Position numbers and translations under genes: made by a program. This document shows, piece by piece, positions 9,201-57,578 of a DNA stretch of 64,000 bases. The stretch lies in NCBI GenBank assembly GCA_037447655.1, contig JBBHKE010002940.1, positions 124,001-188,000 on the forward strand, given 5' to 3'. The notes beneath the pieces were generated by a model. It was not told the DNA's origin and ran no database searches. It worked only from the letters and a program-made list of their open reading frames with translations. The DNA comes from Zygnema cylindricum (lineage: Eukaryota; Streptophyta; Zygnematophyceae; Zygnematales; Zygnemataceae). Position 1 is the stretch's first letter, and each line of letters opens with the position of its first letter.

Positions 9201-10200
9201 TATATCAAAAAGAGAGGATTATCATCATGCTTCTCTATTTTCTTGGGGACTGAATGAGTAATTTTGGTCATTTGTATGCAGAGTATGGAGGGAGCGACAC
9301 GAACTATCCAAGCCAATTCTTGCTTCTTTGTTGGATGCTTTTTAGGTCATGTAGAGGACAGCTCCTTTCTTCACCAACACTTGTCCCAGGTATGTCTTTA
9401 CTTCCTTTTTGGCAGTATGTCTTCCCTTTCTTTTTGAAATTATGTATGTCTTCCCTTTCTTTTTGAAATTATGTATTCCCTTTCTTTTTGAAAGTATGTC
9501 TTTCCTTTCTTTTTGAAAGTATGTCTTTCCCTTTTTTTTCAAAGTATGTCTTTCATTTCTTTTTGAAATTATTTGTTTCCTTTCTTTTTGAAAATATGTC
9601 TTCCCTTTCTTTTTGAAAGTATGTCTTTTTTTTTTCTTTTGCAATTACAAAGGTAGGATTTGACTTTAAAGCTGTCAGGGAATCGTCAGATCTTGGACAA
9701 TGTCTCGTGAGTTTTTTTCTGATGGAATTACTCCGTACTACTGCACTGTAGTAGCGATAAGATGAGCCCACTAAACATCATGAAAGGTCACAAAAGTCCT
9801 TCCGCTCCCCACTGCATGCATGATTTACGTTGTTTGACAAACAATCAAAGTCTGTTATTTTTTTTTTTTTCTGCTCATGTTAGACTATTTTTCTGGTGAC
9901 ATCACACCAAATCTTGGACTTGCTCCCTCTCCCTCCGTCTCCCTCCCTCTCCCTCTCCCGCTCCCCTTCCCTCTCCCTCTCCCCCTCTCCTTCCTTCCTT
10001 CCTTTCCCATTTCCCTTCCTTCCCTCTCGCTCTCCTCCCTCTCCCCCTCTCCCTCTCCCCCTCTCCCTCTCCTTCCGTGTGTTTTGCAGGCCAGCGCCAT
10101 GCTTGTGCGTTTGGCGTCCAACTCCTCCAGTCCTCCGGTGCGCGCCAACTCCGCCCAGGCGCTGGCACTGCTGCTGCGCCGCATGCCGCAGACCACCTGA
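287..10200 (+). CDS. SGR6-like: HEAT-repeat protein, SGR6/MROH1 family, C-terminal 539 residues (15 exons, 5' end outside window)
   Basis: Exons read as 287-427, 956-1191, 1497-1616, 2466-2526, 2765-2863, 3069-3169, 3474-3576, 3820-3933, 5312-5386, 5626-5724, 6124-6195, 7359-7444, 7950-8043, 9282-9389 and 10090-10200 (TGA). Joined they give exactly 539 codons with every splice phase compatible. The translation is a series of alpha-helical HEAT-like repeats with signatures such as SPLVRRLCVDGLVK, VLPRLLFHVDDDSAEVR and LALLLRRMP, which match my recollection of the C-terminal half of plant SHOOT GRAVITROPISM 6 and animal MROH1. Plant members are about 1,700 residues, so roughly two thirds lie to the left. 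Family role: SGR6 is a vacuole-associated HEAT scaffold needed for vacuolar membrane dynamics and gravitropism. No catalytic residues are expected. One intron is GC-AG. The acceptor of exon 2 (tgtgag) is the weakest splice call. Confidence 0.88.
1617..2465 (+). other. GC-AG intron in the HEAT-repeat gene
   Basis: The donor reads AG|GCAAGT and the acceptor TTCAG|GGAC. Only this GC donor joins the flanking exons in frame: AG plus G restores an Arg codon and yields the family motif LQAFCDC directly after it. A GT donor at 1669 is also present but would insert residues that break the alignment to the family. Confidence 0.75.
7529..7770. mobile_element. Short MITE-like element in an intron of the HEAT-repeat gene
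   Basis: The left end, CACGGTGAAATCGTTATCAG followed by TGTTAA, and the right end, which reversed reads TACCATGAATTGATATCAGC then GTTAA, form an imperfect inverted repeat about 26 bp long. The ends match the family seen at 14391-15005 and 15023-15638. There is no coding capacity. Confidence 0.6.
9001..9027. repeat. Perfect 11-bp-arm hairpin in an intron
   Basis: ATTTTACCCTC at 9001-9011 is followed by a GTTTT loop and the exact reverse complement at 9017-9027. It lies in the 8044-9281 intron. No function is assigned. Confidence 0.7.
9390..9636 (+). repeat. Intronic minisatellite of about 25-bp units starting at a splice donor
   Basis: About ten degenerate units of the form TATGTCTTTCCTTTC plus TTTTTGAAAG run in tandem. 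The first unit is the real splice donor of the exon ending at 9389 (CAG|GTATGTCTTT). Most later units repeat an A-A-G/T-TATGT donor-like start and a pyrimidine tract. Confidence 0.85.
9922..10076 (+). repeat. (CTCCCT)n polypyrimidine tract upstream of the last exon
   Basis: About 150 nt of nearly pure C/T made of CTCCCT-type units end just before the acceptor GTTTTGCAG of the terminal exon at 10090. Long spurious reading frames (SPSPS or GEGER strings) on both strands come from this repeat and are not genes. Confidence 0.85.
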
Positions 10201-11745: not shown

Positions 11746-13301
11746 CCTTAAAGGCGCTGACAAAAAGCCTACAATTGAAACGCTTACTTTTGAACTATGA
11801 TTAAAACATTACAAACCATATTATTTTCATTATTTTAATTAATTCTCATATAGTTTTCAAGGACTAAATTACCTGATGGCACTAAAATCGAAATAGTTAT
11901 CCAATCGATGTCGGAAACAAGAATGAAAAGACAAATTCTTAATGTCTGTAAGCATATAGAGTCTGCTATATGTTACAAATATGTTTTTAAATAATAGTGA
12001 AAAAGGCTTTCGTTCTCTCAAAGGTTATTAATGAGGATTATTAGGGCTGAAGTAAATGTGTTGTGCATTACTTTATGGCGGTGGAAAGAATGGTGCATAT
12101 GCTGGGCCCCATTTCAGTGAGCTTAATTATGTTAGGGGTTGATGACTATGTTTGTTTTCTTAATTTATTCTTAGATTTTATAGTGTTATTAGGTTTCGCT
12201 GGTCCTGTCTCGTTTTTTGGTAAGGATTTTGTTGTTTTTAGGCATGTGTAGGCTATCAAGAGTATGTTTCCCTTAGTATGAATTATGACGGCAATTTAAA
12301 AAGTGTTCCCATGGGATTTTGGCGTCATTGTGTGTGAGGGCGATAAACAGTACGTTGTTAGAAAGAAAAAATCCTCTGTTTTACCAAAGTGTGTTTTTTA
12401 TCTTTTAAAAGCTTTTTCACAGGGTTGTGGTCAAGAGATTATTTAGGCTTCAGGACAAAAGTCACCACGTATTTTCTGCAACAGCTTCACAATTTTGTAT
12501 AAAAACCTCTGGGAAGCGGCACTGCTGGCCTGTTTTTAAATGATTGGAGGACAAATTGGAGGACAAATTTGGAGTGCAGTTACAAAGCTACCTTTGAATG
12601 TCATTATTGTCAAGTTCATGTTTAAACTCACTGAGTATATGGCAGTGTTGTGATGACAATCGACTGTTCTTTAACTAAATTATAACAATCAGATTTCCTT
12701 TACATTGGCCGGCTGGATTTTGCTCTTCAATTAAATTGTTGGCTTCGTTTTATGGTTTTTGAGTTTGCGTCTGAGCCTAAGATTTCAATATAAATGGTCC
12801 ATTATATCATGTAGAGCGTTTGAATTATCTCGACTCTAGCTTTATTATGAACGTATAAAAGTAAAAACTTATAGTGTGAACTTATGTAAGGACAAAATGC
12901 CGCACTAAATGACTCTTGAAGCTCCATGTCACTTTGTACGGATTTTTTTGTTCCGGAATATGTGCGGTAACATTAGCTAGCAATTGATTGGGAATAGTAA
13001 CTCGATATTACGTATGCTTTGAAGTACTCCTCCGATTCTTCTCTCTAAGGGGTTTGAGCATTGAAAATTGATGATGATGTAAGTTTACAAGGAGTACCTC
13101 GCCTTCGTTGTATAACGTCATTTTCCATTTATCAAAGTGGCCGTTGTCACTTTCACAACAACTAATGGCAACTTGAATTTCTCTCCATGTTCCACTTCGT
13201 CATTCAAAACCTAATATGGGAGCACCTGTCAAAGTCAAGCAGCTCACAATTTTCATCAAAAGTCAGTATTCACAAATATTGGTGTGTATTTGCAAGGGAC
13301 T

Positions 13302-37416: not shown

Positions 37417-38095
37417 AGGCGGATGGAGCGATTGCTTCGCAGATGAAGACCAAAATGTAATCGGAGAAGGTGAAGAGAGCAAGGTGTGCAGGTTAATAAA
37501 ATCATTGTATAGGTTGAAACAAACATCACCGGATTGGAAGAAAAAATTAGATATTTTTTTTACCGGGCTAGGATAAATAAGAATTAGCACATATCATTCA
37601 ATTTAGTTGTTTGAATTCGAGGAAGGTGTCATCTTTATTGCAGTGTATGTTGACGATTTACTGGTGTTAAGTCGGTCATTAGAAAAGATCAATAAAGTGA
37701 AAAAATGTTTAACGGGTCGCTTTGATATGAAGGATGTAGGAGAGGTTAAATATATCTTAGGAATCCAAAATGGAAAGAAATATGAAGGAAAGAATCATCG
37801 GACTAACACAGAAAGAGGCAATATGAAATATGTTATAAAAATTCCATATGGAGAAAGCCAACAGTTGCTCTACTCCAATGGAATTGAAGAAAGTGAGCGA
37901 ATGGAGCTTAGAGGAAGGTGTTGTGATATTAGATGATCATATGAGTAAATAATAGGAGGCATTCATGAGAGATATTCCATATAGACAGGTTGTCGGAAGT
38001 CTGATCTACTTTATGAACTGCACTAGACCTGATATTGCAGCAGCAATAGGAATTTTGATCAGGGGTCTTAATGCGCCTAGAAAGATTTGCGTCCA
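37417..38095 (+). pseudogene. pol: Ty1/copia pol fragment (copia-3)
   Basis: Consecutive frames give VCRLIKSLYRLKQTSPDW (37,485-37,540), VIFIAVYVDDLLVLSRSLEK and FDMKDVGEVKYILGIQNGKK, then after frameshifts IPYRQVVGSLIYFMNCTRPD and IAAAIGILIRGLNAPRK. Sequence resembling RNase H stops at about 38,095, and the next bases belong to the 150-bp repeat. Only this fragment remains; no LTRs were found. Confidence 0.88.
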
Positions 38096-38138: not shown

Positions 38139-38287
38139 ACACGCGCGATTGAGTGGCGTCGATACAAAAAGTTCACGGAGATTTGATTCTTAGTAATAAT
38201 GGCTTTTTTTTTTCAAATTAGTTGATGTACACATTAATTACAAGATTAAAAATTTTGCCGACTTTTTTTTAGGAATTGCTACTTATT
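38139..38287 (+). repeat. 150-bp dispersed direct repeat, copy 1 (copy 2 at 39265-39416)
   Basis: Both copies start ACACGCGCGATTGAG / ACACGCACGATTGAG and end AGGAATTGCTACTTATT. Copy 1 fuses directly to the tail of an F-type lectin exon. Copy 2 runs into unrelated sequence. The junction marks the breakpoint that removed the upstream part of the first lectin exon. Confidence 0.85.
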
Positions 38288-38319
38288 AACACTTTGCGAA
38301 GTCCGTGCTTACGGCTATG
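38286..38319 (+). pseudogene. Truncated F-type lectin exon, 3' end only
   Basis: The bases encode LTLCEVRAYG and stop at a TATG|GTGAGT donor in phase 1, exactly like the end of the intact exon at 42000-42440. The first 280 nt of the following intron are also nearly identical in both places (38320-38600 and 42441-42720). The rest of the exon is missing, replaced by the 150-bp repeat. Confidence 0.75.
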
Positions 38320-38641
38320 GTGAGTTGGAAGGTGTTGTATCAAATAGACGTAAACAGGCACGCTAAACCAATTTCTTGTATGCTATCACATCAGTTTATT
38401 GCGATTCATTCAATGTGTTTTCATGCGAACATAATTTCCTGCATATATTGTGCTTTGAAATAGGGGAGGATTTTAAAGACAAGAAACTTAATTCTTCATA
38501 CTGATCACGAGTTGCAAAATGCAACTCCTTTACATTCGTGTGTATTGGGGCAAACATCTTGTATGGTATCATTCGTTTTCCATGTTGGGCTTCTTTAGTA
38601 TGGCTATTGATATGAGTCACTTTTGGCAGCATTGGATTCAG

Positions 38642-38905
38642 GATGCCCGAATCCCGTTTCCTGGCGAACATTTACACAAAGGGATTCCCTTGGGAATGAT
38701 CTACGATCGCGGACAATAACGAACTACCCCGGGGATGAAGGATTTAAATTCTGTGCGAATGAATGCGCCAAAGATTGCAGATGCAAAGGCTTCAATCTGT
38801 CTCCTAAAGTAAACTCCGTGGAAACGTGTTGGTTGAAATTTTTCATCGAAGTGGAATCTAGATTGACGGTTACCAATGACTTGAATTTGTTTGTACGAAA
38901 CGCAG
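38642..38905 (+). CDS. PAN/Apple-domain exon (upstream module; gene status uncertain)
   Basis: The acceptor ATTCAG|GA and donor GCAG|GTGAGC enclose an open exon, phase 1 on both sides, reading GCPNPVSWRTF ... FKFCANECAKDCRCKGFNLS ... CWLKFFIEVES. The C-x3-C-x3-C-x-C-x-GF pattern followed by CWLK is typical of PAN/Apple modules in secreted proteins (protein or carbohydrate binding). An alternative acceptor at 38630 keeps the same phase. It could be spliced straight to the lectin exon at 42000 (phase 1 to phase 1), or belong to a broken earlier copy of the gene. Confidence 0.65.
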
Positions 38906-39603: not shown

Positions 39604-39740
39604 GTGCGGGCTACGCGACAAAGATTACAAAGGCTTCAATTAGTTGACTGCATATGGATAGTGTTGGCTCAAGTATTACATCGAAGTGGAATCGAAGCTG
39701 ACCGAAACCGTTTATCGGGATTCGTATGTTAAACGTCCAA
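39604..39740 (+). pseudogene. Decayed PAN exon remnant
   Basis: One frame gives C-x7-KGFN then a stop. After a further stop, CWLKYYIEVESKLTE is clearly related to CWLKFFIEVES in the exon at 38642. A GTAAGT donor follows in phase 1. Two in-frame stops mean it cannot be translated as a whole. Confidence 0.65.
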
Positions 39741-41999: not shown

Positions 42000-42440
42000 T
42001 TAATTATGCCTTGGGACGACCGACATACCACAGCAGTACGCTCATATTGAATGGATACCCTTACCCAGCAAGCCTTGCAGTTGACGGCGAGCCTAGTGGA
42101 CTCTTCCACGAAGGCAGTTGCACGCACACCCTTGAATCTGCTGATCCTTGGTGGATGGTTGACCTCGGAGAATCCTCACAAATTGAGAAGGTGGAGTTAT
42201 GGAACAGGAAAGATTGTTGTCAAGACAGAATGATTGGGGTTCAAATATGGGTGGGAACAAGCAACCAACGGTGGGATGCCGTAGGAAACAAAGAGTGCGA
42301 TCCTTCCAATTATTATAATGGATTATGGGATGGAAGACCGTTCGCAAAGACATGCTTGAGCAGAGGGCGTTATGTTTGGGTACGCCTAAGTGGTCAAAAC
42401 AGAATTTTAACACTTTGCGAAGTCCGTGTTTTCGGCTATG
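42000..42440 (+). other. F-type lectin (fucolectin, F5/8C-fold) exon with intact fucose site
   Basis: A single 1-1 phase exon of 146 codons begins [13 protein letters not shown], the usual start of fucolectin/tachylectin-4/pentraxin-1 domains, and ends [12 protein letters not shown]. His42 (42125-42127), Arg69 (42206-42208), Asp71 and Arg76 stand in the H...RxDx4R arrangement of F-type lectins, with the vicinal Cys72-Cys73 pair between. Relative to the eel agglutinin numbering I remember (H52, R79, D81, C82-C83, R86), every residue is offset by exactly ten. L-fucose binding is therefore likely. Confidence 0.9.
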
Positions 42441-45400
42441 GTGAGTTGGAAGATGTTATATCAAATAGATGTAAACAGCCACGCTGAATGAATTTCTTGT
42501 TTGCTATCACATCAATTTATTTCGATTCATTCAATGTAGTTTCATGCGATCATAATTTCTTGCATGTATTGTGCTTTGAAATAAGGGAAGATTGTAAAAA
42601 CAAGAAACTTAATTCTTCATACTGATCACGAGTTGCAAAATGCAACTCCTTTATATTCGTCTGTATCGGGGCAAACATCTTGTATGGTATCATTCGTTTT
42701 CCTTGTTGGGCTTCTTTAGAGAGTTTTGAGTCAGTTTTACTACGGAATTTTAGAATTCGGAATTTGTTAAATTAATAAAAAATATGTCAAATTCTAGTCC
42801 AGATGGTAATGTTTTGGAGATAGCGCAAGGGCACGATCTAATTGTCGTATTTTCCAAACTTTCATGTCTTCCTTATTTCCTTTCATTTTTTGACTCAAAC
42901 ATGTTTTAACCTGTTGGGTCAACATTTCACCATGCAGATGGTCAATCGTGCAATGACATTCAATATTCCTATACCGCTAATGGCAATATTGACGCTAACG
43001 GAAATGATATTGCATATTATGATGCAACCGCTTCAGAATGTCAAACGAAGTGCACAATGGACTGCACCTGTACAGGATTTTTTATTAATAATCGACAATG
43101 TTGGATAAAGTGGAATACCGATAAATCGGCTCGGACTTATTTGGGCTACGGGTTTTTGTATACAAAAAGTCAAGGTAAGTGTTTCATTTCAGAACTTCCA
43201 TTAGCCAGAAAGATTTTTTTGTACAATCAATAACGGTATAATATGCAACCAAATATGAGGAATGTACACTGCCTACAAAATCTTGAATTGGATCAATTAA
43301 CTAAAAGTCAACGCGTCACCACCATAATTTCTTATCAAACTTTCGGAGAAGTCACTTCATAAACGACTCGGCCAATCCCCACGACCCAAAACGCATGCAT
43401 GTGCGATAAACACTAAATTCCAATACAGTGCCCTACTAATTGCACTAAACTTCTACATGTACTAAAAAAAACTACCAGCACATTTTGTGCAACCCCCTTG
43501 CCTTTCTTACTAGAACTCCATATGAGCCAACCATTGGTACATCCAAAAGGATTCTTTTTTATTGTGTGGTGTTACTAGACGACAATACAACTACGTACGC
43601 TAATTTCACCCTTTCCAACCATTTGGTGGTTGCTTCATTTCCTGTTTAATAACATCTTCATCATCGTCCAAATCTATTTATACGTTGAATCATGATCCTA
43701 TAATATAGACAAGATATAACCTCGGAAAAGGAGATTACTCACACATTGAGTCTACATTGAAACTACTGGAAATCATGCACAAATATTGAAACAAAACAAA
43801 ACAAACCAAAACCATGTACACAAAACGCGCATGCAAAAATTACAAACGAAACTAAAAGTACTAATGAAACAAAACGAAACGAAAGAACTGCGCAACGTGA
43901 CACGCGACAAAATGAAACCACACTATATACGAACCAGCATTACAACATTAACATTAATTCCCACATTGTAAATCTAACATCCCTCTCCCTCTCCCTCTTC
44001 CTATCCCTCTCCCTATCCCTCTCTCTCCTCCCTCTCCCGTGGCAGTGGCAGTGGGAGCATTGGGAGTGGATGTTAGTAAATGGACATCTCCGAGCTCAGG
44101 ACCATTTTTGGTTATTCCCTCCATTTCTTTCAATGCCTGGGCGGCTGAAAACAACCGTGATGAACAAGGAGTTAATATTCTGCTATACAATTGTAATTTT
44201 CGATTTTTTTTCTCTTTTATTGACAATCCTATATTATTAAATTTTATACAATCACACATTTGAAATTTCTCTCTTATGTTGACATTTCCTTTGTTATTAG
44301 TTTGGAACTTTTATCTCTTATATGTGAAGTTTCCTCTTTCACTTGCTTTATTTCTCACTGACATTCTTTTGTTTGTGGTTATGCCCGTTTGAATTTTTCT
44401 CGTCAATATTTTCATTGTTTGACAACTTTTGCCTTATTCTATTTTTGTTCGGCATAACACTTTCTGGTTCTTCATGAACAATATTGTGCAATTTTTTGTT
44501 ATACTTGTAGTCGTTACATTTTTTTTCGACAAACTTTTTCGATTGCCTGAAATTATTTTATTTCATTCGTTTGCATCCTTTCTGTATCCTTTCTTTTAGT
44601 TCGTGCAACAATATGTTTTTTTGGATCCTTTTCATCTCGCAAATTCTCATTTGATGTTTTATTTATTGAGAATTCCTTACATTTTCCAACTAGAAACATG
44701 ACTCTTTCCGAGTGTAATCAACATTCTCCTTTTTTTTTCCTTTCTTTCACTTGTTTTTTTTTTAACAGACCCAAATGGTTTTGACAACAATGTCGGAGGA
44801 CTTTGGACTGTCGGTACTTCCAACAGTTATTATTATTTTCAACAAAACACGGGAAAATGTCTTTCGATTTCTTCCAGTACTTCGGGATCAGCATTGATTC
44901 TTTCAAGTAAGTGTTTTATGTAGTTTGAAGTATTCGAGTATCTTTTAAAATATTTTCCCTTAACTTTAATAGACTACACTCAATCATCGACAATATTAAA
45001 TTTTTCAATTTCCCCTTTCGTTATTTCACTTTGTGTTTGATTAAAATTTTTGATCACAAATGTACCTTTATGAACGTACCTGGTCATATTTTATCAGCAA
45101 GGGAGTCAAACTTTTGAAGGTCTCTTTCTTTTTTTTTCTCTTTTCTCTTTTATCTTTTTTTTAACACCATCGTTATCTTTATTGTGGTTAACTTTAGATA
45201 TAGTTTGGATATGAAAACGCGTTTGGATTCTAAAAAATAAAAAGAACCTGTATTAAATTGAAAAATCGTGTTTGGAACACATCCATTTTCTCAATATAGA
45301 ATGTTACTTCCCTTTCAAACGCTTTCTCGAATAATCAGTGATTTTGGGATTATTACGTTATTTCAAAATTCTCTTATATTTTAACGTAAATGATATAAGA

Positions 45401-48400
45401 ATCAAATATTATGTTCAGATGGTCCTTTTTTTATTAACTACTGTTTATTTTGGCGACTTGTCACCATGTTTATCACGAACGATACAATTTTGCTCTCTCT
45501 TCTTCCCTCTTCTCGCTCTTCACTCTTCCTCTTTTTCTCTTGCTTCTTCCATTTTTTCCGGTGCAACTGAATCCATGGATCTGAAATCTGTTTGAATTCC
45601 CATCATCTCGGATTTTTTTTTTGCAGATTGTAACCGTGAAGCCAGCCAGCTTTGGACACCGATTTATTCTCGTAAGGAGATAGATTTTGCAATTCAATGG
45701 CAGAATAAACTGTCAGGAAATTGTATTGACGGAACAGGTGTCGCTCTTGGAAATTCGGTAATACAGTGGACATGTAAATCGGTCAGCGATTGGAGTATAA
45801 CCAATCAACTATGGTTACCTCTCCCTCGATCTTTAGTAAACGCTGATTCTTGTGTGTAACCACTTAAAATTCTTAAAACTCAACATTTACCAAACCAGTT
45901 AAAATCGCAAATTGGGAACGATTCAAATTCTAAAAAAAATTCCATCTTCAAGTCTTTTTCCATCGTTCGGTTTTTCAACTTGCTAATTGTTTACTTTTGT
46001 TTTTTGAAACCTTCTAGAGCATTGATGTGAGTCTCCCTTTTGTTGAAAAACACTTTACTTTTTTAGATATTGTTCAAATCTCTCCAAAATACAGTTGAAA
46101 ATCCTTCAATCGAATTTTCTTTCTTAAAACTTTGTGCTACATCTATTTTCATATTTTTCTTTTCTCCGTTCTTTATGAACAGCACCCTCAGGTCTCTCTC
46201 AATCGGGAAATCCTTCTGCGGTTACTTCAACTTTAAATGTTTTTTCTCGACATTCGAGTCAAATTTCAAATCTTCCAACTTACGTCGATTGGTCGTCGTA
46301 TTTTGGACCAGTAAAGGACCAATTAACATGCGGTAAATGGCTTAAGTTTACACTGTTTTGTTCCTTTTAATACACATTTTAATATTGCGAGAGAATTTTG
46401 GCGATTATTGATAAGAATTTTTTTTGTGTCTCGATATTAAAGTTATGATTTAATCAGTCCCTTTTCCAGTAATCACGATTAATAAAACATCACACTATTC
46501 GCACAACTAATTGTGAGCCATGACCGTTTTTACCGGAATTATAACTGAACAAAAGAGAGCATTTGGCTTTTTTAATTTTTGTACATGGATTGACAGTGAG
46601 TTTTTATTATACGAGTTGTAGTTATTCTCATCCATACTAATAATAGACCTTTGAGCCCTAACTTTGGTTTATCGGCAAGTTAAAGAAAATAAGTACTTGA
46701 TGCGCGAATAAACCCTTATTTTTTGGACACCTTTTTTTGCAAAAACGCGAAAACCACGAGCCTTATGCATTCGATTTTTTTTCTTTTGTGGTTGATAGTC
46801 GGTAATGATGTGTTAAAAAAAATTGGAGTCTGTGAATTGTATTTATTTCTAAGTCAGCTCTAATTTGTTTATTCTACACCTATGTCATTGACATTCTCAA
46901 GACAATTTAGAAACTCCAAACTTGAAACTCACCATTTTGTATTGTGAGCCACATAACTAAAAAAATAATTTAAAATCGATCTTATCAACAGGAAGCATTG
47001 GTGTACGAATACATACTTGTTTATACCCCATTTTGCCCATTTTCACAGGTTCATGTTCTATTTTTGCGGTTGTTGCTTCGATTGAAGGAGCATATAACAT
47101 TTGGTTGGGAAAAAATGTGAATCCTATCGTATTTTCGGAACAACAAATATTAGATTGTTTCGGTTCTTGTCTAGGAGGCTGGTCAGAAGACAACTTTAAT
47201 TGGCTAGTTTCACAATCGGGAGGACTTGCAACACAATCTGATTATGGAGTTTATAAAGGTCAAAGTTCGGGAAGCTGTAAGGTGGGATTTCCGTTTTTCT
47301 TTTTAGTTTTGGTTTCCATGATGTAGGAAGTTGTTGGGTGGTTGTCACTTTTTTTTTGTTTTTCTTTCGTTTTTTTTTTAAGAATTGAGTTGAACTTCGT
47401 GTTTATTTTCTTTTTAGATTCTGTTTTAGGAAGTTGTAATGTTTTTTCATGGTTTTTATCGGTTCAGTCTAAAAAGGAGTTTTTGCGGGTTAAAATGTGT
47501 TATTTAATTATTTTTTTTCATTTTCTTAAGGTTTTCTTGTGGGTTTGTAAGGTTCATTTTAATTTTCGTTCAGATTCGGGGAAAGAGGTCAGGAGAGAGG
47601 AGAGGTGGAAAGAGATGAGAGAGAGGAGAGGGAGGGGTCTGCGAGCGAGAGAGAGACCCCATTAATTCGTCTTTCCTTAAATCAGTTCCCTGTTACGGCT
47701 ATTCCCTGATTCGCTCCTCAATTTTATTCCTTGCCCCCTCGTGTGTCGTGCTTTCACACTGAAGGTACAGCCGATAAAACATATTCTTTCTTGTCCACTT
47801 TTGGCCACGCCTTTGCTTTTAGGTTTGGCATTGTGCAAATCCGCTAAGTGATCGTGTGATTGTTTTTCCCGCCTTTGCATGTTTTGTCTGGTATATAATT
47901 CTTTTTGTCTAGTTTCATACTCCAATCATATACACGGTTCTGTGCAACGTTTTGTTTCGTTAGTGTGTGTTTCTGTCAGTGCTTACGTGTTCGTCTCTTT
48001 GTTTGTTTTGGTAAGTGCTGCCACTTTGTGTCTTAGGATTAAGTTAAGCTAGTTTGTCTGCCGGCTGTTAACCGTGAGTTGTATTTTAAGCTTTTAGTGA
48101 AGTGCGAGAGAAGTAGTGGGAGAGTGTGTGAAATAGCTTCGACTTAACATATGCGTTTTTGGCCGAGAACGGGAGTGTAGTTTGTGAGTGTATTATAAAT
48201 GCTTTCGCTTGTGTAGCTAAACGTCTTTGTCGAGCACCGCGGTGTGTAATCGATCCTATCATTTGCCGCCATCTATACAACATCCTCTATTAGGGAGGGT
48301 GAGGAGGAGAAGAGGAGGAAGAGGGATAAGGAGAGTAGGCGAGAGGGGGGAGGGGTGGAAGGAGGGTGAGGCTGAGGCGGCGACAAGGACGAAGACAAAA

Positions 48401-51400
48401 GGGGGGTGGAGTGAGAGGGAGAGGGTAACATTTTTTTTTTTCACTGTTGTTAGTTGTTGGTGCTTGGTGATTGGTTGCTGGTTGTAGTTGTGGTGGGTTG
48501 TGGTGGTTATAGTGATTGTGGTGGTGTTGTGGTAGTCATTGTGTGATTGTAGTTGTTGTTGTGGTGGCTGTCGTTGTGGTTTGTTGGTGCTGTTACTGAT
48601 GCTTTGTCTTGTTTTTTGTTGTTGTCGTTGTTGTGGTTGTTGTCGTGTTGTTGTTGTTATCGAGGTTGTTGTTGTTGTTGTTGTCATTATTGTCATTATT
48701 GTTTTGTCATTGTTGTGGTTGTTGTCGTGTTATTGTTGTTATCGTGGTTGTTGTTGTCATTATTGTCATTGTTGTCATTGTTGTGGTTGTTGTCGCTGTT
48801 GTTGTTGTTGTCATTATGGTCAGTGTTGTCGTTGTCGTTGTTGTCTTTATTATTTTCTTGATCTTTCTTATGATCGCTATCCTTTTTCTCATGATTTATC
48901 AATATTATCATGCTTTAACTTGGCTTCATACTTATCTCAGTTTTTCCTTTTTTTGTATGTAGTGGGGCATCTTCACAGATTCTCGAAATGAGTGTCAAAT
49001 TGATTCACAATTGAGCCATTTTGTGACTCTGGTCGGATACGGTACAGAAAATGGTGTTCCATATTGGATTATTCGCAATTCATTTGGATCCGATTGGGGT
49101 CAAAACGGGTATGGGCGAATTAAAAGAGGAATTTGTGGAGTTAATTCCCTTCCGGCTTCGTATCCGGTTATCTCTGGTAAGATATGTCATCTACGATTGT
49201 GAACAAAAAAAAAATCGTGGAAAAATCTGTGCAAAAACCGTTTCTTTTATTGTTACTGCTATTATCGTTATTATTATTACTGTTATTATCATTATTGTTA
49301 TTATAAATATTATTATTGTTGCTGTTAGTAGAATTATTATTCCAACTGTACTATCAATATTGTTTTCCTTGATCATTTATTATTGTTACCTGTTATTTGT
49401 TAGTGTTTTTTTGCTATTTATTATTCTTAGATTTTTTATTATTAATATTGTTATTTATTAATTATATATTGTTAAGGGGTTTCCTCACCCACCTACCTGC
49501 TACCTTTTACTTGTTTGTTTGGTTGTTTTGTTTGTTTGCTGCTTATTTATTTTTATTATTGGTACGTATTAGTATAGTTATTTAACACTATTTCTATTAT
49601 TTATTGTTAGTATTGTTAACATAATTATAATTTTTTTCATTACAATTATTATTGTGTGGTACTGTTATACATTGCTAGTATGTAAGGTGGTACTTCCATT
49701 TCATTTCATCGATTTCTGATTTTTGAGAAGGAAACCCTGTTATGATCAAAGAAGTTCCGGAAGTTTTAGTTTCTTGGATTTATGATTTGGACATTTAATC
49801 CCCAGACATTTAGCCCTCTTTCTCCCTCTCTCCCTCTCTCCCTCCATCCCGACTTCCTCTCTCTCGTTTGCTGTGTCCTTTCTCCTTTCCCCTTCCTCTC
49901 TCTCCCTTCCTTTCCTGCCTTTCTCCTCTCTTGCCGCCCTCCCTCTCCCCCTTCGTCCTTTCAATATTTTTTTGCATCTTTCTTTTTTTTTTTTGGTGCA
50001 GCTCCGGACAACAATCCATGTAACGCCAAAATCAATCCGTGCGGATTCGGAACATGTGTTCCCTCTGCGCCCCCCTCCACAAATTTTTACACGTGTAGTT
50101 GTCCTAATGGTTATGTTAGTGTGAAGAATTCCGACAATACCGCAACATGTGCCCTTCGTAAGTTTCATATCCTTCAATTCATACATGTGGGCCCGTTGTA
50201 TCTGATTTATGTTGAAGCTTTGTAGGTCATTTATATTTGAGCTTTGAAAAAATCATTTTTTAATAACTTATCATCTGTACTAACGCTTTCTTTACATTAT
50301 TTACATTCGGTCTTCGGTCATATCAATTATAATAAAGCTGCGTAACCTTATTTCAAATTTTTATCCTTGTATGTCGCTTATTTTTAAGCTTTGTGCATGA
50401 TTTATGTTTCATCTTTTTATACACCATTTATGTTAAAGCTTTATTTGTGTTATTTATATTAGGGATTTGGGCATATCATTTTTAATAACACTTTGTATTA
50501 CTTGTATTTGAGCATTGTAAATCATTTATAATAACGCAGTGTAAAGTGACCGGTAACAGTGGTTCCACAATTATTATTTTTCTGTGAAATTTTGTCAATG
50601 TGTTTATGTCAAAGCATTTTGTTAGAGCTATGCATTCTTTCAACACATAAAATTCAACTATTTTGTTTTCTATGTCGATGTATACATCATTATATCTGAT
50701 TCCCGAAATAGTGTAAGACTACCTTACCTTTCAATCTTTTCTTTCTTTCCCTTATCACCCGCTCACCTGGTATGTTTTTTTTGCTTGCCAATTGAAGGTC
50801 ATTGTTGTTCGTAAACATTTTTATCTTTTTTTTCTTGTATTTTTTGCAGTTGATGTGTGCAGCTCCTCTGGTTTTAATCCGTGTGGAGCCGGAAGTTGTA
50901 TTAATGAACAAAATGGGTTTTACCATTGTGTTTGTTTTCTTGGGTACATACCGTCGATCAATAGCCAAGGAAACCCCATGTGCGCCCCACGTGAGTACTT
51001 TTCAAAACCACGTAAAAACTCATGTATTGCATTTTATTTCCTCGCATAAACACTTAAGAGTTACAGTAAAGAATTTGTAAAGAGTCTAGTTAAGCATTTG
51101 AAATTTTAGTCATAGACGAATCGATGATATTGTGAAGTTAAAGTTTCATTTTTTTGTTTCTAGTTCGTCATCAGGTCGTGAATGTTAATTACTATTTTAT
51201 CTGAAAGTTCCAATCTTTATTTTTTTTTAACTTTGTGAAAAAGCATTGGTTAGTTACTGTTTGTCGCGTGCATTTACAACAAGAGCGGTTTACTCTTATT
51301 TCAAAATCTTCTACCTCATATTCACAATCGCCCAACAATTTTTTAGTAGTTGTTTGATAATTTTATTTGAACTTAAATTGTCGCAGCGGTGGCCACTGAT

Positions 51401-54400
51401 TCAACTTTACCTCAAACTTATAAAGTACTTTCGGGCGATTATTGTTATGTCATTGCGTATGCTTTTGGATTAACTATTCAGCAGCTCCTTCGTCAAAACA
51501 CGAACATACGATGGGTGAGAATTTGTTTTCTTAAAATTTCTATACCTCTTACGACAAACATATTCCAAGACTAAAGTTTTGGATATTATAAGCAAGTTTT
51601 AACTTTGTTATCGTAGCTAATCCACACACTATATACAAATTCTTCTATTTGAGGGGGACTTTACACTAACTAGTGTGTTGTAATGAACGGGTTTACCTCA
51701 CTCCTTTCAAAACAAGAGGTATACATTATTGGTAATTAGTGTGGATGACGTTAATGGTGGTTAGTTGAAAAGCAATTATGTAAATCGGATTAAGTTTAAT
51801 TTTCTGGATTTGACGAGTTGGGAAGTTATTAATTGCCCTAAAATTTCTTCCAACTAGAAGTTGAATCATAGCATAAAAATAAATAAAAAATTACAATGGA
51901 ACCTCTTTTTTTATCCAGGTTTTCCGGTGGGATTTACAAAACTGTTTTCTTTTTTGTTTTTAATTTCTCGTTGTCGGTGTAACTATGTTGGATTGCAAAT
52001 TTTCCAAATTTTCATTTTTTTTCTCGATGGTGACGTTGGTGCGCGTATTGAAGATGTCACATATGTCACATGTTCAAGCAAGTCTATTTTTCCACTTTAC
52101 TTAATGTTACCGTTTTTTTATTGTTTCTATATAGGGTCTCTGTCTACCAGGTAACTTATGGATCGGAGATGTTTTAAACGTTCAAAACTTCGGGGCAAGT
52201 TCGTGCAAAGTTCTTTACAGCATTCAAAAAGTAAGTACAGCTCAAAAAATTCACAAACGTTGATTTCCATAAAATCAGTCAGATTAAACATCATAGGAAT
52301 CAATTTAAATAGTCTCATTGATCTCTGAGAAGCAATTAGAAGTTTCAAGAACATAAACATGCAAATCATGGAAACTAAGTATCTCCGTCTAGTTTATTTT
52401 CCCGATGGTGGCAAGCAAAAAATGATTTTTATTATTTTTTTTCGCTGTTGTTGAATGTTTTACGTGATTGAAGGTGAGAAATTTTATTTTTTCCAATGCT
52501 CACTCACATTGTGCTCAACTTTATGTCCTCTTGTTTTTCTCAACTGTGTTTTAAGTGATTTTTTGTCTTGGTTTTCTTTTCTATTCAGGGAGATTATTGT
52601 TACGCTATTGAACAAACATTTAATCTTGCGATAGGCTCTCTCCCTGTATTGAATCCGGGACTTTACTGCTTGCCTGGTCAAACTCCAGAGGGCTACCCCG
52701 TGGGGATTCAACCCGGGCAGCAGGTAAAGTAAAACAAAAGCTCCCAAAAAATAAAAAAGAGGCTTAACAAACAATAAAAAAAGAATACATATGTATATAT
52801 ATACATATATATATACACATATATATACATATATATACATATATATACACATACATATACATACATATATATATACATGTTTGTATATATATATCAAACA
52901 TTAAAGAAAGGTTGGAAGGAAAGTCCTTCCCCACCTTATGAAAAATGTCCTCACACTTTCATTAGAAGATTGTATAAAAAAAGTAAATCTTCGTGAACAT
53001 TTACAAAGTTGTGGTAAAAAATTTTGTTTATCAAGTGAGTTAAGACTCTATAAAGTCCTAAAGCCGACTTAAAGTCACAGTAATTTGTGTGGACAAACTA
53101 ACGACGTAAATGGGAAAATATGAAGACTGTGTCAATTAGTGTACGAGGTGCTTATGTAGATGCTTCTGTTGTGACAGTGTGGTTTCATAGTGAATAAATT
53201 GCATATTGACCTCATACTATCAGAAGGTAAGTGTACTATAGACCATTCTAGTTATGGAGACTGTTAACAAAGGTCTAAGTTTTTTAGGCCTTTGTATATT
53301 TTACGATGCCACAATTATTTGAACAAAAGCGTAAAACACTTGATTATTTATGTTATTTGGCGTTGTACCACAAGAAAGCGAAATTCCTATTCAAGCCTCA
53401 ATATCTTTCATTAGGAAATTGTAAATGTGAATAAAAAAACCCTAAACATCTCCCTCAAAAGTACACATAATAGACATTCTTATAGAAGTTCAGCTACTTC
53501 TTAGTCCAAGTTATGTTTCATTTTACTTCTTCAATAGCAAGCTTTAAGCTATGTACGGTTTTAAATAGAAAATACTGAAATTTTAAGAAAGAGGAATTGT
53601 TGAATTGTGCAGGTTTGCATCCAAAGAGGGACACCCGATACGAGCAAAGTATGTACTCGAATTGATATCGTGCGAGAAAGTGACAGAAGTAGCAGTAGTC
53701 CATGTAACGCAATTCTCGCACGAAACGCTGGAATCTCGCGACTCGCCTTTTTTGAAGTCAACCGAGGCATCAACTGCGGAAATCTTTTTGCGGGACAAAC
53801 GGTAAAAGACAAAACGGAGTCTACACTTTGGCATACTTTGCAATAACGAAACGTAATCAAGCATGACATCTGTCACAAGTTTACGTACAGGATTTATTGT
53901 GGCTCAAAAAGTTTTTTTTTTACTTTAACATATTTTGACCAAAAAGTAAGGTGTAATCGAAACGTGACATCTGTCACAACTCAAGTTGTACAAGATTTTT
54001 TATGGCTAAAGGGTTTTTTTTTTTTTTTTTATAGATGCTTCTACATGAAAACCAGGAGAGAGGGAGATCGGAGAGTGAGCGAGGGAGGTGGAGCAAGAGG
54101 AGAGAGAGGAGAGAGAGGGGATAGGGGGAGGGCCAACGGGAGGGCGGTGGCGTGGTTTGGAGTTGCCTATACACCTAATTTTGACTTTTTATTTTTTTAA
54201 TTTTGCAGCTATGTGTGGCCTATCAGATCTCTCCTCCCTTAGCTTGTTCAAGATCCTACAGGTGGAGACAAAGTGACACGTGTAATTCTGTGATTTCGTT
54301 GTTTTGTGGAGCGAGGTCAGGGCGGACGTGGCGGCAATGCATGGGAAACACCGCCGGGTTCTGTGTCGGAAGTGAATCTTCTTGGAGCGTTGGGAAAATT

Positions 54401-54469
54401 GTTTGCCCTAAAACTTGTCGACATCAAGTAACAAATAATCGCGTGACAGGGTGTGTCGGCCCCTTGTAG
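42000..54469 (+). CDS. Secreted multidomain lectin-cysteine protease: F-type lectin / PAN / ricin-B / C1A peptidase / 2 EGF / 4 LysM-like
   Basis: Exons: 42000-42440, 42938-43174, 44769-44906, 45627 to about 45851, 46183-46332, 47049-47281, 48963-49176, 50002-50157, 50850-50990, 51387-51514, 52135-52230, 52589-52723, 53613-53801 and 54209-54469 (TAG), about 905 residues. All junctions have GT-AG signals and agree in phase, except that the donor after 45627 is uncertain. The protein has three classes of glycan-binding module around a papain-like catalytic unit, and disulfide-rich EGF and PAN domains, so it should be extracellular or wall-associated. No start codon or signal peptide was found; the 5' end lies upstream, perhaps through the PAN exon at 38642. 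Such a domain set is not one I know from land plants. Substrate and role are unknown; defence or wall remodelling would be guesses. Confidence 0.82.
42938..43174 (+). other. PAN/Apple-domain exon
   Basis: A 1-1 phase exon of 78 codons: [39 protein letters not shown], ending YTKSQ. The cysteine spacing C-x3-C-x3-C-x-C-x-GF and the CW(I/L)K motif define a PAN-like fold. Confidence 0.82.
43979..44040 (+). repeat. CT-rich tract in the intron before the ricin-B exon
   Basis: CCCTCTCCCTCTCC-type sequence, about 60 nt. Confidence 0.8.
44769..45851 (+). other. Ricin-B-like (beta-trefoil) lectin region, two exons
   Basis: Exon 44769-44906 encodes [20 protein letters not shown]. Exon 45627 onward encodes [38 protein letters not shown] and NQLWLPLP. 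Repeated Q-x-W motifs and the K-C-L/N-C-I-D pattern are typical of ricin-type trefoil repeats. Only about one and a half repeats are visible, so the domain is short or diverged. An in-frame TAA at 45856 forces a donor before it. GTGTGT at 45852 fits the phase of the next exon; GTAAAC at 45836 is a better site but out of phase. Confidence 0.65.
47282..48962. other. Intron inside the protease with GA tract and (GTT)n array; no central exon found
   Basis: The splice phases of 47281 and 48963 match directly (0-0). Papain homologues carry about 40 further residues here (the QPVSVAID strand). I scanned all frames and found nothing like it. The intron holds a purine tract at 47583-47655, unremarkable sequence to 48300, G/A-rich 48296-48430 and a GTT/GTC microsatellite at about 48470-48860. 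Confidence 0.6.
48470..48860 (+). repeat. (GTT)n/(GTC)n imperfect microsatellite in the protease intron
   Basis: About 390 nt of GTTGTTGTT-type repeat with GTGG and GTCATTATT interruptions. Open frames of V, C or L runs (+) and N/T runs (-) are artefacts of it. Confidence 0.9.
49240..49465 (+). repeat. (ATT)n imperfect microsatellite
   Basis: TTATTATTACTGTTATTATC-type sequence in the intron after the protease exon. It directly follows the donor region at 49177. Confidence 0.85.
49810..49960 (+). repeat. (CTCCCT)n tract upstream of the first EGF exon
   Basis: A long C/T-only stretch ends about 40 nt before the acceptor TTTTGGTGCAG at 50001. This is the same arrangement as before the last exon of the HEAT-repeat gene. 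Confidence 0.85.
50002..50990 (+). other. Two EGF-like domains, one per exon
   Basis: Exon 50002-50157 (1-1 phase) has [33 protein letters not shown] and TATCA: six cysteines in the EGF order C-C-C-C-x-C-C. Exon 50850-50990 (1-1) has [33 protein letters not shown] and PMCAP with the same order. No Asn-hydroxylation consensus and no clear calcium-binding motif are visible. Confidence 0.88.
52785..52895 (+). repeat. (AT)n/(AC)n microsatellite
   Basis: ATACATATATATACACATAT-type sequence in the intron after the exon ending 52723. Confidence 0.9.
54052..54130 (+). repeat. GA-rich tract upstream of the last LysM exon
   Basis: GAGAGGGAGATCGGAGAGTG-type purine run, about 80 nt. It is the strand complement of the CTCCCT tracts. 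Confidence 0.8.
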
Positions 54470-57173: not shown

Positions 57174-57396
57174 ATGGCGTCTCTCTCTCTCTCGCAGGCG
57201 CGGCTTGTTCTCCTGGTCGCCGCCACGTGCCAGCTTCTGGTTGGCGTCGTGGCGCCGCCGCCCAGAGTCACGGATCTCTTCTTCTCCCCTTGCCCGGTTC
57301 TCACTGAACCCTCTCCCCCTTCCTCTCTCTTCGATTCTCCTCCCCCTCCCTCTCCTCCCCCCCCCTCTCCTCCTCCTCCTTCGCCTCCCCCCCCAG
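57174..57396 (+). CDS. First exon of a secreted SPPPP (hydroxyproline-rich type) protein
   Basis: ATG at 57174 opens MASLSLSQARLVLLVAATCQ, a clear signal peptide with a hydrophobic core and likely cleavage after VGVVA. A short segment with one Cys follows, then about four SPPPP repeats, up to a CCAG|GTAAGC donor in phase 1 after 74 codons. SPPPP motifs in algae and plants are sites of prolyl hydroxylation and O-glycosylation in wall proteins. Later exons are not visible; a gap begins 182 nt after the donor. The phase-1 end would accept lectin-, PAN- or EGF-type exons like those of the gene just upstream, so this may head a related protein. That is inference. Confidence 0.72.
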
Positions 57397-57578
57397 GTAA
57401 GCCACGCTTCACTTTCTTGTGATTCCCCCTTTTTGCAATGTACTGATTCTTTATTTGGCTGGTTGTGCTGTTATCCCCTTTTTTTTTTCTTAATTATTTT
57501 GTTTTTGTGATTTGTTTTTTGAGGAATACCGTTTTCAGTCGGAGCAATGGAAACCGTTTTTTTTTTTTTTTTTTTTTT

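What the first reader, a model, noticed from the sequence alone, without database searches (positions are those of the whole stretch)
42000..54469. Lectin-protease-EGF-LysM fusion protein with an unfamiliar domain set
The exons read directly as F-type lectin, PAN, ricin-B-like, papain-like protease, two EGF and four LysM-like repeats on one strand with compatible splice phases. Each family is well known (F-type lectins bind fucose, LysM binds GlcNAc polymers, C1A cleaves proteins), but I know of no described protein combining them. The combination suggests a glycan-targeted extracellular protease, perhaps acting on microbial or own-wall glycoproteins.
Basis: partly seen in the sequence, partly recalled or inferred. 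Interest (0 to 1): 0.88.

Follow-up and report, generated by a model that had tools for sequence, protein, structure and literature searches.

The report
Lectin–protease chimera family, one decayed copy
The stretch holds one damaged copy of a large gene family in which sugar-binding modules of several kinds are joined to a papain-like protein-cutting enzyme; the family is unusual, while this particular copy probably no longer makes a working enzyme.

Summary
On the + strand the window carries PAN, F-type lectin, PAN, ricin-B (three exons; one was missed at first), papain-like C1A, two EGF-like and about four LysM modules in phase-compatible exons. Exon order recurs in siblings on other contigs of the same 353-Mb genome, with acceptors at the same place in 78 of 92 and donors in 86 of 90 matched exons. 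Ricin to LysM is one gene; the TAA at 45856 is intronic.

Two parts that siblings have are missing here: a 48-codon exon inside the protease (present in 8 of 8 siblings with a readable interval) and the start codon plus signal peptide (seen in 2 siblings). The copy is probably decayed, unless the assembly is wrong.

The family matters more. Of 113 C1A last-exon hits, 15 have a ricin exon, 11 a legume lectin and 6 an F-type lectin within 12 kb upstream on the same strand; chance predicts 0.06-0.16. One sibling has a hevein domain. Lectin-protease chimeras are known, so I file this as a new variant. No transcripts or named relatives were available.

The parts
38642..38905 (+). PAN exon (type U), phase 1 in, phase 1 out
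   Evidence: 83% aa identity to the C695 PAN exon; PAN_2 0.0023 for the ORF; ends read; DNA homology to C695 stops at 38626, so the signal-peptide part of the sibling exon is absent
38286..38598 (+). duplicated piece of F-type lectin 3' end plus intron (copy of 42407-42719, 92%)
   Evidence: self-blastn; sits where siblings have ATG and signal peptide
39614..39709 (+). remnant of a second PAN-U exon with in-frame stops
   Evidence: tblastn
42000..42440 (+). F-type lectin exon, phase 1-1, fucose-site pattern H..R.D.CC..R kept
   Evidence: Pfam 7.4e-18, PDB 3cqo 6e-41; 433 of 441 bases identical to C695 against 1141 of 1262 in flanking introns, p 4e-9
42938..43174 (+). PAN exon (type that follows F-type lectin), phase 1-1; its region is absent from C695
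   Evidence: matched in C695, C1920, C791, C1552, C41 and C1597; the acceptor is at the exact place only in C695, elsewhere shifted or not seen
44769..44906 (+). ricin-B second exon, phase 1-1
45627..45851 (+). ricin-B third exon, donor CTT|GTGTGT, phase 1-1
46183..46332 (+). C1A exon 1 (mature N terminus LPTYVDW..QLTC), no I29 propeptide seen
47049..47281 (+). C1A exon 2 with catalytic Cys (CGSCSIF)
   Evidence: Pfam 2.5e-11
47575..47579 (+). junction: 379 bp of C695 (composite 11764-12142), which hold the 144-nt phase-0 C1A exon 3, have only 3 bases in their place
48963..49176 (+). C1A last exon with catalytic His and Asn
   Evidence: Pfam 7e-18; 1 nonsynonymous and 10 synonymous changes against C695
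50002..50157 (+). EGF-like exon 1, six Cys, phase 1-1
50850..50990 (+). EGF-like exon 2, six Cys, phase 1-1
51387..51514 (+). LysM 1, first half
52135..52230 (+). LysM 1, second half, and start of LysM 2
52589..52723 (+). LysM 2
   Evidence: chitinase A LysM chain 5bum 3.5e-5 (that it is from Volvox is recalled)
53613..53801 (+). LysM 3 (diverged)
54209..54469 (+). LysM-like 4 and stop TAG 54467-54469
   Evidence: homologous exon in C1763 and C695; no Pfam match

Best explanation
The window holds one member of a multi-copy family of chimeric lectin-proteases. Shown: a C1A papain-like domain is preceded by differing sugar-binding or adhesion modules (PAN, F-type lectin, ricin-B, legume lectin, hevein) and, in the ricin class, followed by EGF and LysM repeats; the F-type lectin, PAN and ricin exons have phase 1 on both sides, which lets such modules be inserted without breaking frame. 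Inferred mechanism: the protein is secreted, the lectin modules dock the protease on particular glycans (fucose by the F-type lectin, galactose-type sugars by ricin-B, GlcNAc polymers by LysM) on a cell wall or foreign surface, and the tethered C1A domain cuts glycoproteins there. Inferred history: in the parent of the window copy and of C695, an F-type-lectin-plus-PAN unit like that of the legume-lectin class was put between the PAN and ricin exons. The window copy later lost a C1A exon and its signal-peptide part and is most likely no longer a working enzyme.
For: Exon order ricin-C1A-EGF-EGF-LysM in 6 of the 14 stretches fetched (14 of the 29 LysM matches), plus contig 41 with one EGF found. 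Contig 1597 carries PAN-PAN-ricin-C1A (complete)-EGF-EGF-LysM with no stop in the matched parts of 15 exons. Splice ends: acceptors 78 of 92, donors 86 of 90 at the exact place. Contig 695 has PAN-FTL-ricin-C1A-EGF-EGF-LysM. Second class: contig 1824 has FTL-PAN-legume lectin-C1A. Same-strand upstream lectins near C1A: ricin 15, legume 11, FTL 6 of 113; chance 0.06, 0.16, 0.15; downstream 2, 1, 0; opposite strand either side 0, 1, 1. Hydrophobic starts: contigs 695 and 1920, 41. C1A exon 3 present in 8 of 8 siblings (2 read by eye, 6 found by search); the complete C695 domain scores 2.4e-45 in one stretch. Constraint: 11 nonsynonymous of 27 changes on the window branch, p 9e-5, and 12 of 26 on the C695 branch, p 9e-4. 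MOA as working precedent (passages).
Against: No transcript. FTL is upstream of only 2 of the 15 ricin-class C1A hits (window and its near twin C695), and C695 lacks the PAN that follows FTL here. C695 has a lesion (LysM1b acceptor missing) and C1920 two (stop in the first PAN; donor of the last C1A exon). In the ricin-class copies read, the residues after the catalytic Cys and after the Asn-Ser are Ser and Phe, where papains mostly have Trp (recalled), so activity is not certain. FTL alone: about 3.5 nonsynonymous to 4.5 synonymous changes, p 0.02-0.08; its Ks (0.047) is the lowest of the exons, so recent conversion or duplication could also explain its likeness. Not every exon exceeds introns (88.7%): PAN-U 243 of 277, EGF1 137 of 156. 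19 changes (12 S, 7 N) could not be polarised, and EGF exons of C695 look exchanged with C1597. Sugar binding and secretion are untested.
Confidence: 0.64

Rival explanations
1. Two genes side by side: an F-type-lectin/PAN gene piece was dropped by duplication next to, but is not spliced into, the ricin-C1A-EGF-LysM gene.
For: 13 of 15 ricin-class C1A hits lack an F-type lectin upstream; local duplication is evident; in contig 1482 the FTL-PAN pair lies on the opposite strand beside a C1A-EGF-LysM piece; the PAN that follows FTL is gone in C695; the low Ks of the FTL exon allows recent copying instead of selection.
Against: Phase 1 ends fit on both sides; FTL exon far more alike than its introns between the two copies, p 4e-9; FTL upstream of C1A on the same strand recurs in a second class (4 hits).
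Confidence: 0.23
2. The window copy is intact and functional, and the missing C1A exon and signal-peptide part are assembly errors.
For: All other exons are open with AG/GT ends; constraint pattern on the window branch; the stretch missing relative to C695 ends in a GA-rich simple repeat that could collapse in assembly; the loss keeps the frame.
Against: Two separate losses; the 5' loss coincides with a 313-bp duplication; no N run there.
Confidence: 0.15
3. The ricin-class proteins are pseudoproteases: lectin scaffolds whose C1A fold is a structural or regulatory part.
For: Changed residues next to Cys and Asn in the ricin-class copies read; no I29 propeptide match.
Against: Cys, His and Asn are kept in the copies read; last C1A exon has 1 nonsynonymous to 10 synonymous changes; the legume-lectin class keeps SCW and NSW.
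Confidence: 0.2

Closest known systems
MOA, Marasmius oreades agglutinin (PMC8408931, passages)
   Same: N-terminal ricin-B lectin joined to a C-terminal papain-like cysteine protease; both parts needed for its action on nematodes
   Different: fungal, two domains, calcium-dependent protease; no PAN, F-type lectin, EGF or LysM; no family of swapped lectins described in the passages seen
C1A-LysM proteins of non-vascular lineages, EGF-ricin proteins, and the LysM-fucolectin protein of Chlamydomonas (PMC6362431, passages and section 12 part 1)
   Same: C1A paired with LysM; EGF paired with ricin-B; LysM paired with a fucolectin domain; C1A-lectin pairs not kept in vascular plants in that survey
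   Different: the parts read do not say which species carry C1A-LysM and do not describe ricin, F-type lectin, PAN, C1A, EGF and LysM in one protein
Lectin_legB combinations of Zygnema, 26 architectures (PMC11096116, passages)
   Same: lineage-specific shuffling of a lectin domain in a streptophyte alga
   Different: C1A partners not named in the passages read
Lectin-enzyme fusions and expanded peptidase_C1 of Saprolegnia parasitica (PMC3681718, passages)
   Same: ricin or CBM1 domains fused to secreted proteases, and a lineage-specific papain expansion
   Different: oomycete; the ricin fusion named in the passages is with subtilases
F-type lectins FBP32 (3cqo) and the 1k12 lectin
   Same: sequence, H..R.D.CC..R pattern
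   Different: not fused to a protease

Membership tests
F-type lectin | sequence match to solved F-type lectins and fucose motif H-X26-R-X-D-X4-R/K with vicinal Cys pair (motif recalled) | tested here: met
   3cqo 6e-41, 1k12 1.5e-16; aligned H, R, D, CC, R identical. Among 10 aligned paralogs the motif is kept in some and altered in others
F-type lectin | fucose binding | not testable with these tools
   needs protein
Peptidase C1A | catalytic Cys, His, Asn | tested here: met
   CGSC, SHFV, RNSF in window exons, aligned to ficin and actinidin
Peptidase C1A | complete domain | tested here: not met
   window lacks Pfam 102-153 of 220; sibling C695 covers 1-215 in one stretch, 2.4e-45
Peptidase C1A with I29 propeptide | inhibitor I29 prodomain before the mature N terminus | tested here: not met
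   no I29 match in the spliced protein at E up to 10 (HMMER filters drop most weak matches)
Ricin-B lectin | Pfam Ricin_B_lectin over cut-off | tested here: met
   35.8 bits against 29 for the three-exon domain, match covers the second and third exons
Ricin-B lectin | sugar binding by a QxW trefoil | not testable with these tools
   QLW seen twice in the sequence; binding needs protein
LysM | Pfam LysM over cut-off | tested here: met
   three stretches, 9.3e-18; the fourth repeat has no match
PAN/apple | Pfam PAN over cut-off | tested here: inconclusive
   window exon 42938-43174 below cut-off (19.5 against 21.4 bits); 7 of 8 members match PAN_1, best 1.5e-7; profile finds kallikrein 2.3e-5
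EGF-like | six-Cys EGF pattern, Pfam EGF cut-off | tested here: inconclusive
   six Cys in each exon; 20.6 against 21.5 bits
MOA-like chimerolectin (works like) | ricin-B lectin N-terminal to a papain-like protease in one chain | tested here: met
   exon order in siblings; one chain is inferred from splice sites, not from cDNA
MOA-like chimerolectin (member of) | common descent of the protease domain with MOA | not tested
   MOA sequence not compared; MOA is not among the PDB matches shown for the C1A queries (60 of 174, 60 of 67)
C1A-LysM proteins of PMC6362431 | C1A and LysM in one protein | tested here: met
   pairing shown in siblings; orthology not testable, protein database off

The most novel reading that the evidence does not exclude
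This genome keeps a combinatorial repertoire of secreted lectin-tethered papain proteases, in which phase-1 lectin modules (F-type, legume, ricin, hevein, PAN) are exchanged among protease genes by ongoing exon shuffling, with copies gaining modules and decaying. It would be a germ-line-shuffled arsenal of glycan-addressed proteases against microbes, in an organism without adaptive immunity.
Probability: 0.35. Interest if true: 0.86.

Novelty: new variant of a known kind. Interest (0 to 1): 0.62.

Why it matters
If the family is expressed, it is a natural set of proteases addressed to different sugars by differing lectin modules. Comparing the classes would let one test directly what glycan targeting does for a protease, and how domain shuffling through phase-1 introns, best known from animals (recalled), runs in another lineage. 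The window copy and its twin C695 may catch one insertion (F-type lectin plus PAN) at a young stage.

Tried and rejected
Rejected: that the ORF stop at 45856 ends a gene (intronic). Rejected: that the gap in C1A is an exon I had overlooked. The three forward frames of 46300-50002 were scanned with Pfam, and sibling exon peptides were searched against the interval and the whole window: no credible match. Rejected as chance by eye: a CVSVSA reading near 47960 that looked like part of C1A.

Led nowhere: Pfam read-through of the three forward frames of 27-42 kb found only a copia reverse transcriptase and a low-complexity extensin match; it also missed the PAN exon at 38.6 kb, so it is not sensitive. 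Rfam at gathering scores found nothing. F-type lectin relatives in named collections: 6 distant bacterial loci at 33-54% identity, none viral. The F-type lectin tree resolved only the window-C695 pair, and one of its 11 rows (C1657) was read on the wrong strand; it is not used. LysM4 of the window and C695 is too divergent (ratio 0.96) to be sure that the two are orthologous. In one search the exons ricA and ricB gave 0/0 because of my diagonal filter; their figures come. In one search the C695 C1A exon 3 was printed out of frame; searches give the right frame.

Rows left out: of the 150 matches (a cap; 237 candidates) I used the 113 that cover the His/Asn exon. In one search I left out contig 1824 and four misassigned matches (PAN2 in C695, C1920 and C1597; EGF1 in C41). 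Of the 14 stretches (chosen from 29 LysM matches, one of them the window's own), 6 show ricin-C1A-EGF-EGF-LysM, C41 shows it with one EGF found, C1763 and C1482 are partial, C1242 shows EGF-EGF-LysM only, C2338 has a distant C1A and EGF pieces, and C2569, C21 and C230 have no other exon at E 0.01. Of the 11 legume-lectin cases, 7 lie 2.8-3.1 kb and 4 lie 7.6-10.5 kb upstream; the far ones may belong to other genes. Some ricin cases come from tandem copies (C120, C1638).

Literature: in the titles and abstract beginnings listed (open-licence papers only; several lists capped far below the number of hits) I saw none that describes this architecture. Supplements were not read.
Full report
WHAT WAS CLAIMED.

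IS IT THERE. Splicing the visible exons at AG/GT ends gives one open frame of 913 aa with matching phases throughout. Pfam supports C1A, the F5/8-type fold, LysM and ricin-B above cut-off; EGF and PAN are below it. The F-type lectin call is firm: FBP32 at 6e-41 and the 1k12 lectin at 1.5e-16, with the H, R, D, CC and R of the fucose site aligned (that these are the site residues is recalled). PAN is supported by a profile of 8 such exons from this genome. The LysM part is closest to solved chains named extracellular protein 6 and chitinase A. A first ricin exon, 44052-44192, came to light by comparison with siblings, and an intact PAN exon lies at 38642-38905.

IS IT ONE GENE. Around 14 of the 29 LysM matches I fetched DNA. 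Six stretches, on contigs 791, 1920, 2476, 1597, 1552 and 695, show ricin, C1A, EGF, EGF and LysM in the same order on one strand; contig 41 shows the same with one EGF found; seven show less or nothing (listed under Tried and rejected). Over nine siblings the acceptor sits at the exact homologous place in 78 of 92 matched exons and the donor in 86 of 90; the misses are mostly at the first ricin exon, at LysM1b and in the more distant contigs 41 and 1763. The donor after the third ricin exon, CTT|GTGTGT in the window, has a counterpart in the siblings and is CTT|GTAAGT in contig 41, so the TAA at 45856 is intronic. Ricin to LysM is one gene. Whether F-type lectin and its PAN are spliced in is less certain. 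For it: the phases fit, contig 695 has the lectin at the same place, and that exon is 98.2% identical between the two copies against 90.4% in its flanking introns (p 4e-9). Against it: its Ks is the lowest of the exons (0.047), so recent copying or conversion is not excluded, and its own N:S test is weak (p 0.02-0.08).

WHAT IS WRONG WITH THIS COPY. The C1A domain lacks Pfam positions 102-153. All 8 siblings with a readable interval have a short exon there, two read by eye and six found by search. In contig 695 it is 144 nt with phase 0 on both sides, so its absence keeps the frame. The window matches contig 695 up to and after a 379-bp stretch that holds this exon. The complete contig-695 domain scores 2.4e-45 in one stretch. 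Second, contigs 695 and 1920 begin with an exon that codes for a hydrophobic, signal-peptide-like start and PAN together (no signal-peptide program was run). The window matches contig 695 only from 38626, and the place of the start is taken by a copy of 42407-42719. A scan found five weak candidates and no convincing replacement. Changes since the split from contig 695, polarised with contigs 1597 and 1552 over 7 exons, are 11 nonsynonymous of 27 on the window branch (p 9e-5 against neutrality) and 12 of 26 on the other (p 9e-4); 19 more could not be polarised. Exchange between copies may blur this, for example at EGF1, where contig 695 equals contig 1597. So the copy was probably under constraint for most of its time and decayed late, or the assembly is wrong at two places. 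Other copies have lesions too: contig 695 lacks the acceptor of the second LysM exon, and contig 1920 has a stop in its first PAN and lacks the donor of the last C1A exon. Contig 1597 shows two PANs, ricin, complete C1A, two EGF and LysM 1 to 3 with no stop in the matched parts of 15 exons; its start and last exon were not fetched.

THE FAMILY. Contig 41 has a signal-peptide-like start, a hevein domain (5.6e-6; 26.9 bits against 27.8, 29.6 bits), ricin, C1A, EGF and LysM. Contig 1824 has F-type lectin, PAN, a proline-rich piece, a legume lectin (3.3e-34) and C1A with the usual SCW and NSW motifs. Genome searches gave 78 F-type lectin, 83 legume-lectin, 31 ricin and 31 hevein matches and 150 C1A exon matches, a capped number. 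Of 113 C1A last-exon hits, 15 have a ricin exon, 11 a legume lectin and 6 an F-type lectin within 12 kb upstream on the same strand; chance predicts 0.06, 0.16 and 0.15; downstream gives 2, 1 and 0, the opposite strand on either side 0, 1 and 1. Seven of the 11 legume lectins lie 2.8-3.1 kb upstream, four lie 7.6-10.5 kb away. Two of the six F-type lectin cases are the ricin class (window, contig 695) and four also have a legume lectin. The simplest history is that an F-type-lectin-PAN unit of the second class was inserted between PAN and ricin exons in the parent of the window copy and contig 695; the lectin tree was too poor to test this.

HOW IT MOST LIKELY WORKS. Shown by sequence: lectin-type domains, a C1A domain with Cys, His and Asn, and hydrophobic starts in siblings. 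Inferred: lectins address the secreted protease to glycans and C1A cuts there. The mushroom protein MOA, ricin-B joined to a papain-like protease with both needed for its effect, shows that such a design can work (PMC8408931, passages). Against full confidence: no I29 propeptide, two changed positions next to the catalytic residues in the ricin-class copies read, and no expression data.

WHAT IS KNOWN. A survey of plant lectins reports C1A with LysM, EGF with ricin-B, and LysM with a fucolectin domain in algal or other non-vascular lineages, and says that C1A-lectin combinations have not been kept in vascular plants (PMC6362431, passages and section 12 part 1). F-type lectins occur in green algae but not in higher plants (PMC5712786, passages). 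Zygnema has 26 Lectin_legB architectures (PMC11096116, passages). Saprolegnia has expanded papain genes and lectin domains fused to proteases (PMC3681718, passages). The Penium secretome paper names secreted proteases and papain-domain homologs in Volvox and Chlamydomonas (PMC6027541, passages). I saw no listing that names the present architecture, but the library and the lists are partial. I therefore call it a new variant of a known kind.

LIMITS. The protein database was off, so relatives outside this genome were sought only in PDB, Pfam, bacterial and archaeal genomes and viral contigs.

Noticed in passing
window 37460-37768: Copia-type reverse transcriptase fragment (RVT_2 9e-20) just upstream of the broken 5' end.
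   Followed up: partly
window 57176-57420: ORF with MASLSLSQARLVLLVAATCQLLVGV followed by SPPPP repeats: probable first exon of the next gene, a secreted proline-rich protein.
   Followed up: no
L056:1260-7538: Contig 1824: F-type lectin, PAN, proline-rich piece, legume lectin and C1A with usual SCW and NSW motifs.
   Followed up: partly
L022 reverse strand: Contig 41: signal-peptide-like start, hevein, ricin, C1A, EGF, LysM; a hevein module in place of PAN and F-type lectin.
   Followed up: partly
L015:4006-5208 and 6079-9666: Contig 1482: F-type lectin and PAN on the minus strand next to a plus-strand C1A-EGF-EGF-LysM piece; a module in inverted position.
   Followed up: no
window 47049-49176; L009 to L014, L016, L022: In the window and the 8 siblings with both exons read, the residue after the catalytic Cys is Ser and the one after NS is Phe, where papains mostly have Trp (usual residues recalled). 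The distant C2338 copy has NSW.
   Followed up: partly
whole genome G000: At least 150 C1A exon matches (capped) and 83 legume-lectin matches: a large C1A and lectin expansion.
   Followed up: partly
window 48547-48844: TTG-rich repeat array in the intron before the last C1A exon.
   Followed up: no
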